DNA of 64,000 nt from the NCBI GenBank assembly GCA_027013145.1, contig JALUXX010000003.1, positions 1-64,000 of the forward strand. Direction: 5' to 3'. Of the stretch, positions 10,033-11,006 are shown in pieces; the stretch's first letter is position 1; each line of letters opens with the position of its first letter. A model generated the notes under the pieces. It made no database searches and was not told the DNA's origin. It saw nothing but the letters and a program-made list of their open reading frames with translations. Both the position numbers and the translations under genes were made by a program. This DNA comes from Gammaproteobacteria bacterium. Lineage in GTDB: Bacteria; Pseudomonadota; Gammaproteobacteria; 21-64-14.

Positions 10033-10599
10033 ATGTCCGCCGCCCCCCGCAACCGCGTGCGCCTCATCGGCGGGGTCTGGCGCGGGCGGCGCATCGATTT
10101 CGCGCCGGTGCCCGGGCTGCGCCCGACGCCGGACCGCGTGCGCGAGACCTTGTTCAACTGGCTGCAGCCGGTGATTGCGGGCGCACGCTGTCTGGACCTG
10201 TTCGCCGGCAGCGGGGCGCTCGGCCTGGAGGCGGCCTCGCGCGGCGCCGCGCAGGTGGTCCTCGTGGAACGGGACCGGCGCGCGGTGCGTGCGCTGGAGG
10301 CGCAGGTGCGCCGCCTCGAGGCGCACTCGGTCACCGTCGTCCATGCGGAGGCGTCGCAGTACCTGGCGGCGCCCGGCGAGGCCTTCGACGTGGTGTTCCT
10401 CGATCCGCCGTTCGCGGACGCCGCGGCGCTCGCGACCTGCGTCGGCGGGCTCGAGCAGGCGCGGCGCCTGCGCCCGCAGGCGCGGGTCTACCTGGAGACC
10501 GACGCCCGCCGCCCGCTCCCGCCCCTTCCGCCGGGCTGGTCGCTGGTGCGCAGCCGCCGGGCCGGACACGTCGGCTATCACCTGGCGCTGCGCGCCTGA
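10033..10599 (+). CDS. rsmD: 16S rRNA (guanine(966)-N2)-methyltransferase RsmD
   Basis: RsmD methylates G966 of 16S rRNA in the assembled small subunit using SAM. The 188-residue sequence has the family start RLIGGVWRGRRIDF, then TPDRVRETLFNWL, the SAM-binding motif DLFAGSGALGLEAASRGA, VERDRRAVRALE, and the catalytic D/N-PPY-type motif FLDPPF. The length is typical. Its last few codons and stop lie inside a 211-bp tandem duplication, but the upstream copy keeps the reading frame intact. It sits between the M16 pair and coaD, as in other gammaproteobacteria. Confidence 0.95.
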   Translation: MSAAPRNRVRLIGGVWRGRRIDFAPVPGLRPTPDRVRETLFNWLQPVIAGARCLDLFAGSGALGLEAASRGAAQVVLVERDRRAVRALEAQVRRLEAHSVTVVHAEASQYLAAPGEAFDVVFLDPPFADAAALATCVGGLEQARRLRPQARVYLETDARRPLPPLPPGWSLVRSRRAGHVGYHLALRA

Positions 10600-11006
10600 G
10601 CGGGCCGGACCCGCGTCAGCCGTCCGGGCGCGAGGCGCCGCAACGCCAGCAGTCGGTGAACTGCCCTTCGATGCGCTCGCCGCAGACGGGGCAGGTCCAC
10701 GGCGGCGCGGCGGGCCGCGCGTCGGTGCGCAGGGCCTCGGCGACGATGGCCTTCGCGCGCGCGTAATCGGCGTCCTCGGCGACCCACAATTCCGGGCGCT
10801 GCGCGCCTGAGCGGGCCGGACCCGCGTCAGCCGTCCGGGCGCGAGGCGCCGCAACGCCAGCAGTCGGTGAACTGCCCTTCGATGCGCTCGCCGCAGACGG
10901 GGCAGGTCCACGGCGGCGCGGCGGGCCGCGCGTCGGTGCGCAGGGCCTCGGCGACGATGGCCTTCGCGCGCGCGTAATCGGCGTCCTCGGCGACCCACAA
11001 TTCCGG
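10584..11006. repeat. Exact 211-bp direct tandem duplication
   Basis: Bases 10584-10795 recur at 10795-11006 with no mismatch that I can see, giving a 211-bp period. The unit runs from the final codons of rsmD (GGCGCTGCGCGCCTGA) through the 3' half of the DUF2007 gene on the minus strand to ATTCCGG. Sequence diverges abruptly outside both junctions. Perfect identity means a very recent event or an assembly artefact. The rsmD copy at 10599 and the DUF2007 copy at 10827-11147 both remain complete. Confidence 0.95.
10616..10795 (-). pseudogene. Duplicated 3' fragment of the DUF2007 gene
   Basis: This is the extra copy of the DUF2007 gene's C-terminal ~60 codons, produced by the 211-bp tandem duplication. 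It retains the zinc-ribbon segment [11 protein letters not shown] and the terminal CGASRPDG and stop, but has no start codon or N-terminal domain. It is identical to the intact copy and probably not expressed as a protein on its own. Confidence 0.85.

What the first reader, a model, noticed from the sequence alone, without database searches (positions are those of the whole stretch)
10584..11006. Exact 211-bp tandem duplication captures half of the DUF2007 gene
The two units show no difference, and both junctions are sharp. Biologically this is a fresh tandem duplication leaving both flanking genes intact plus a headless copy; technically it could be an assembly error. Either answer matters for anyone annotating the locus.
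Basis: seen in the sequence. Interest (0 to 1): 0.5.

Follow-up and report, generated by a model that had tools for sequence, protein, structure and literature searches.

The report
Recent 211-bp tandem duplication of gene tail
A bacterium carries a small, perfectly identical, back-to-back duplication that copied the end of one gene and the gap next to it without breaking either neighbour; it is most likely an ordinary recent mutation, and the number of copies shown may be a minimum.

Summary
In detail: 10584-10795 repeats without a mismatch at 10795-11006 (212 bases, period 211, one ambiguous G at the junction). The unit holds the last 16 nt of rsmD, the convergent gap and the last 180 of 321 nt of a minus-strand DUF2007 gene. 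Both genes stay intact; the extra copy is a 57-codon zinc-ribbon fragment with a TTG start and no clear ribosome site. The one same-genus genome found has a single DUF2007 match, so the duplication looks derived. Twelve pairs of contig ends share exactly 127 bases, which I read as a k=127 de Bruijn assembly. At that k the junction adds 125 k-mers that a one-copy allele lacks, so reads should have carried it, but two and three copies give identical k-mer sets: read 'two' as 'at least two'. Diverged tandem arrays of similar size occur in this genome (29 in 1.05 Mb of a partly biased sample, 24 with REP-like strings), and one other captures a gene tail. Best reading: a genuine, recent, near-neutral tandem duplication, probably by template switching or slippage. 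No function. Low interest.

The parts
10584..10794 (.). first 211-bp unit (end of rsmD, convergent gap, tail of DUF2007)
   Evidence: exact repeat
10795..11005 (.). second 211-bp unit; base 11006 (G) also matches, giving the one-base junction ambiguity
   Evidence: exact repeat
10033..10599 (+). rsmD, 16S rRNA (guanine966-N2)-methyltransferase, intact; its last 16 nt lie inside unit 1
   Evidence: TIGR00095 163.6 bits over cut-off 117.5; PF03602 185.2 bits
10827..11147 (-). DUF2007 gene (PF09413) with C-terminal CxxC...CxxC zinc ribbon, intact, GTG start
   Evidence: PF09413 69.9 bits over cut-off 25.7
10616..10789 (-). headless copy: 57-codon open frame (TTG) holding the zinc ribbon only
   Evidence: no earlier ATG/GTG/TTG in frame before the upstream stop
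10795..10810 (+). second copy of the last 16 nt of rsmD
   Evidence: sequence
10584..10596 (.). 5-bp stem, 3-nt loop (GGCGC-TGC-GCGCC) whose foot is the left breakpoint; may be chance
   Evidence: fold; perfect 5-bp stems with loops of 3-8 start at 2.6% of local positions
11255..11734 (+). coaD, pantetheine-phosphate adenylyltransferase (flank)
   Evidence: TIGR01510 189.5 bits over cut-off 103.3
11804..12058 (+). YfhL-type 4Fe-4S ferredoxin (flank)
   Evidence: NF033683 129.8 bits over cut-off 86

Best explanation
A genuine and recent direct tandem duplication of a 211-bp stretch across the convergent rsmD/DUF2007 boundary. Shown: exact identity, one base of junction homology, one DUF2007 match in the same-genus genome, both genes left intact, and that a two-copy path needs k-mers a one-copy allele does not have. 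Inferred: that reads carried those k-mers; that it arose in one step from a replication template switch or slippage (or a staggered break filled in and joined); that it is near neutral because it falls between the two stop codons; and that its extra DUF2007 tail is not a working gene. The true copy number is two or more, and may vary between cells because exact 211-bp repeats should recombine easily.
For: 212 of 212 bases identical, sharp ends. One DUF2007 match in the same-genus genome, with one tail and one rsmD end seen. Among 60 DUF2007 loci of relatives no exact tandem duplication of this kind, and a second tail hit only in L050 and L051, where the tails are diverged. Zero differences in 212 bp against 12 of 43 fourfold sites differing from the sister gene, so the event is young relative to the split from that relative unless gene conversion keeps the copies alike. 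12 contig-end pairs share exactly 127 nt; at k=127 the two-copy allele needs 125 k-mers that a one-copy allele lacks. No N in 624,952 own bases, so no sign of gap joining there. Diverged tandem arrays, hard to explain as assembly errors, occur in this genome with periods of 112-371 bp in 28 of 29 cases including this one, and one at L073:1120-1875 also captures a gene tail, three copies at 93%. Ku was not found in either genome (0 of 2; the control rang in 1 of 14 named genomes), which speaks against classical end joining.
Against: No reads, depth or second assembly of the same species were available. A one-base junction is also what random chimeric ligation gives: PMC3411829 (passages) trusted only junctions with longer homology (7-9 bp or more) for that reason. 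One base is weak for slippage too. The sister is a draft whose contigs break inside this very gap, so a copy hidden at the break is not fully excluded. The unit has 0 REP-like hits, unlike 24 of 29 arrays, so the process behind those need not apply. Exact repeats longer than k are where short-read assemblies are least certain; in PMC6052550 some real tandem repeats were restored by no program.
Confidence: 0.75

Rival explanations
1. Assembly or library artefact: chimeric reads or a joining step produced a false loop that the assembler walked once.
For: The repeat (212) is longer than the inferred assembly k-mer (127), so the path was chosen by read pairs or a heuristic; the unit is 77% GC, where coverage is often poor (general knowledge); a one-base junction is what random chimeric ligation would give (PMC3411829, passages).
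Against: The junction needs 125 extra 127-mers, i.e. reads that cross it; no N in 624,952 own bases; in a published simulation SPAdes gave two copies where the truth was two, for 100-500 bp motifs (PMC6052550 Table 5); other exact tandem runs longer than 127 occur in this assembly in REP-type arrays (L163 202 nt, L180 128 nt).
Confidence: 0.18
2. The locus holds more than two copies, or is mixed in the population, and the assembly shows the minimum (compatible with the best explanation).
For: 2- and 3-copy alleles have identical k-mer sets at the seven k tested from 55 to 213, and a one-copy allele adds no k-mer to a two-copy one at those k; in the same simulation SPAdes scaffolds reported 2 for true 3, 4 and 5 copies of 100-300 bp motifs.
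Against: The assembly shows 2.8 exact copies of a 115-bp unit elsewhere (L163:15986-16302), so it does not always stop at two. Nothing here shows a third copy.
Confidence: 0.2
3. The headless copy is functional: a free-standing zinc-ribbon microprotein, or a second end region for the convergent genes.
For: The frame keeps both CxxC pairs and scores as coding in a home-made gene finder (score 20.9), as any fresh copy of coding DNA would.
Against: The only usual start is TTG with no clear ribosome site; no second tail of this kind at 58 of 60 relatives' loci, the other two being diverged paralogues. The promoter and terminator scan found 0 sites in 10400-11300 but expects 0.0 and 0.3 by chance, so it says little.
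Confidence: 0.03
4. Trace of a mobile element: the same gap holds an IS-like insertion in the sister genome, so the duplication is an insertion or excision scar.
For: In the sister, the contig with rsmD and the contig with DUF2007 both end just past the gap in multi-copy DNA.
Against: Target-site duplications of known elements are a few bases (recalled), not 211; the sister's C31 end sequence has 0 matches in the own genome; the unit has no other strong match in the own genome and none in the fetched stretches.
Confidence: 0.03

Closest known systems
Spontaneous short-junction tandem duplications of bacteria (template-switch or microhomology-mediated; E. coli Lac system, Salmonella chemostats)
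   Same: A novel junction with little homology and no recombinase site. PMC3161906 (passages read) interprets inverted duplications with 3-30 bp junctions, and attributes three deletions with 1-4 bp junctions to similar events, by template switching; PMC3411829 (passages read) reports duplications in Salmonella.
   Different: Those are mostly kilobases long (5.2-42.6 kb inverted duplications in PMC3161906) and come from cultures; the Salmonella junctions confirmed had more than 10 bp of homology. This one is 211 bp with one base, known from one assembly. Mechanism here is inferred.
REP/BIME-type tandem arrays in the same genome
   Same: Similar unit size (112-371 bp), head-to-tail, in gaps between genes.
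   Different: This unit has 0 REP-like hits and holds coding sequence; 25 of the 28 arrays placed touch no predicted gene.
Gene-tail array at G000:C2 (L073:1120-1875)
   Same: Tail of a gene (166 nt) plus downstream gap repeated in tandem, upstream gene intact.
   Different: 252-bp unit, three copies at 93%, REP-like strings in the unit.

Membership tests
recent direct tandem duplication | adjacent head-to-tail copies with sharp ends | tested here: met
recent direct tandem duplication | single copy in close relatives | tested here: met
   same-genus genome G001: one DUF2007 match, one tail, one rsmD end; it is the only same-genus genome returned and its contigs break in the gap
recent direct tandem duplication | copies nearly identical | tested here: met
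   212 of 212
recent direct tandem duplication | present in the DNA and not only in the assembly | tested here: inconclusive
   k-mer argument favours it; no reads
assembly artefact | join marked by N, or repeated unit of k length | tested here: not met
   no N in 624,952 own bases; unit 211, inferred k 127; other kinds of artefact leave no such mark
REP/BIME array | REP-like palindromes in the unit | tested here: not met
   0 hits for three consensus strings, up to 3 substitutions, no shuffled control
insertion-sequence scar | element or its terminal repeat at the junction | tested here: not met
   the unit has only two weak short matches elsewhere in the own genome
functional DUF2007 paralogue | DUF2007 domain (PF09413) present | tested here: not met
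   headless frame lists no PF09413 up to E = 1, only zinc-ribbon and similar families below their cut-offs

The most novel reading that the evidence does not exclude
The locus is a variable-number array (two or more copies, differing between cells), one product of a genome-wide process that keeps making 110-370 bp tandem duplications in gaps next to gene ends in this genus, with or without REP palindromes, and that occasionally carries off gene tails.
Probability: 0.12. Interest if true: 0.4.

Novelty: new member of a known kind. Interest (0 to 1): 0.15.

Why it matters
Mainly for annotation: 10616-10789 should not be called a second DUF2007 gene, and the copy number should be recorded as uncertain. 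If the abundance of such arrays holds up in long reads and an unbiased count, the genus would suit a study of how short tandem duplications start and grow.

Tried and rejected
A Ku-dependent origin was tested and Ku was not found (0 of 2 genomes). A palindrome-driven breakpoint was considered: the left breakpoint is the foot of a 5-bp stem, but such stems start at 2.6% of local positions and the three folds are no stronger than shuffles (z -0.83, 0.09, 0.28). A search of the plasmid collection gave no match. Similarity of the unit to the REP arrays was looked for and not found. An early impression that this was the only exact tandem repeat of its kind held in the first 624,952 own bases but not in the wider sample (L163, L180). 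A guess from memory that the L073 gene is DoxX-like was dropped: no Pfam match. DUF2007 literature: 4 papers hold the word, seen as a listing only. Searches were seen as listings; I read on in PMC6052550 only.

Full report
What is there. Bases 10584-10795 are repeated without a mismatch at 10795-11006; the period is 211, and identity drops to 6 of 20 on both sides. One G at the junction can be assigned to either unit, i.e. one base of junction homology. A search of the own genome returned these two places and two weak short matches.

Gene layout. rsmD (10033-10599, +) ends 16 nt into the first unit; DUF2007 (10827-11147, -) has its last 180 of 321 nt inside the second unit; coaD and a YfhL-type ferredoxin follow. 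Both genes are complete. The duplication therefore falls between two stop codons and leaves, in the first unit, a headless DUF2007 tail: 57 codons from a TTG at 10789, zinc ribbon only, no earlier ATG, GTG or TTG in frame, no clear ribosome site. It matches zinc-ribbon and similar families only below their cut-offs, and PF09413 is not listed up to E = 1.

Relatives. Of 55 genomes searched, the own one included, 18 have a DUF2007 match. It has one DUF2007 match. There fdx-coaD-DUF2007 lie on one contig and rsmD at the end of another. I read the sister's ends, from memory of the family, as an IS200/IS605-type insertion in the same gap; it was not tested with a profile. Because the sister's assembly breaks in the gap, a copy hidden at the break is not fully excluded. 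In 60 DUF2007 loci from relatives (L006-L022 and L024-L066; L006 and L024 are the same place) no exact tandem duplication of this kind was found; L050 and L051 show two or three diverged tail hits, and L020-L022 show no tail hit at that threshold.

Age. The copies differ at 0 of 212 sites; the sister gene differs at 12 of 43 fourfold sites and 27 of 105 residues. By the rule of three the copies differ at less than about 1.4% of sites, a few per cent of the distance to the sister, unless gene conversion keeps them alike. This is arithmetic, not a dated tree.

Could it be an artefact? Of 86 contig ends examined, 13 were all N and are dropped, leaving 73; 12 pairs of ends share exactly 127 bases, one pair 125, and one continuation overlap is 79; further pairs share 112-126 bases at or near their ends (best 60 of 107 pairs shown). 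I infer a de Bruijn assembly with k=127 (the top k of SPAdes, recalled). At that k a two-copy allele has 125 k-mers that a one-copy allele lacks, and all one-copy k-mers are in the two-copy set; two and three copies are identical at the seven k from 55 to 213 and differ at 250 and 300. So reads should have carried the junction, but neither the copy number nor a mixed population is settled. A published simulation with 100-base reads agrees: SPAdes restored two-copy repeats of 100-500 bp motifs, but its scaffolds reported two for true three to five copies of 100-300 bp motifs, and its unitigs none (PMC6052550, sections 14 and 16 and passages read); on real data some tandem repeats were restored by no program. 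Exact repeats over 127 bases are rare: 3 pairs in 651,952 own bases, this one included; the wider sample added tandem runs of 202, 186, 131 and 128 bases in REP-type arrays (L163, L173, L173, L180). Against the reading, a one-base junction is also what chimeric ligation gives, and a Salmonella study trusted only longer junction homology (PMC3411829, passages).

Context in the genome. Tandem Repeats Finder (period 80 or more, score 100 or more) finds 29 arrays in 1,051,952 own bases, of which 24 hold REP-like strings and 5 do not (this one, L072, L162:7876, L163:9079, L166:13812), and 6 arrays in 348,833 sister bases, 5 of them with such strings. The REP-like count is loose (three 18-base strings, up to 3 substitutions, no shuffled control). 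The last 400,000 own bases and the sister stretches were chosen partly because searches had shown repeat matches there, so the density is biased upward; in the earlier 651,952 bases there were 7 arrays by location. A home-made gene finder placed 28 of the 29 own arrays (L149 was too short): 25 touch no predicted gene, one touches 4 nt, and two capture a gene tail, this one and L073:1120-1875, where 166 nt of an upstream gene plus REP-bearing gap stand three times at 93%. Of the 6 sister arrays one touches 56 nt of a gene end (L192). The L073 gene has no Pfam match. REP-like strings after GTAG resemble the GTAG-tagged palindromes of PMC3733652 (start of abstract seen in a listing), and both genomes hold Y1 transposase matches (5 and 8).

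Mechanism. With no Ku found in either genome and one base of junction homology, a template switch or slippage during replication is the likeliest single step; fill-in of a staggered break with Ku-independent joining is possible. PMC3161906 (passages) describes template switching in E. coli; PMC3411829 (passages) describes spontaneous duplications in Salmonella. The step is inferred, not shown.

Verdict. A real sequence feature and most likely a real, recent, near-neutral tandem duplication of two or more copies; not a new gene and not a new kind of element. My paper searches, seen as listings apart from the papers named, showed nothing on this locus, as expected for a draft genome that is unnamed here.

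Noticed in passing
own genome stretches, e.g. L163:15986-16302, L173:8161-8760, L082:8803-9216: Many tandem arrays, often of 112-118 bp and up to 371 bp, with REP-like palindromes between genes; 24 of 29 arrays in a partly biased 1.05 Mb. One is 100% identical over 2.8 copies (L163).
   Followed up: partly
L073:1120-1875 (G000:C2): A second gene-tail duplication: 252-bp unit with the last 166 nt of a gene plus REP-bearing gap, three copies at 93%.
   Followed up: partly
L088:2075-2150 and L093:4138-4438 (G001): In the same-genus genome the same rsmD/DUF2007 gap is broken by multi-copy DNA with an IS200/IS605-like look (recalled), so the gap seems to have been hit independently in both genomes.
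   Followed up: partly
L050:2686-3788 and L051:2672-3318: Two Phycisphaerales loci carry three and two diverged DUF2007 tails in a row, perhaps older tandem paralogues.
   Followed up: no
L194:14057-14967 (G001): A 169-bp unit in 5.4 copies at 97% without REP-like strings in the sister genome.
   Followed up: no
window 10839-10913 (-): The DUF2007 C-terminal zinc ribbon matches DUF7577 below its cut-off (23.4 against 28 bits).
   Followed up: no
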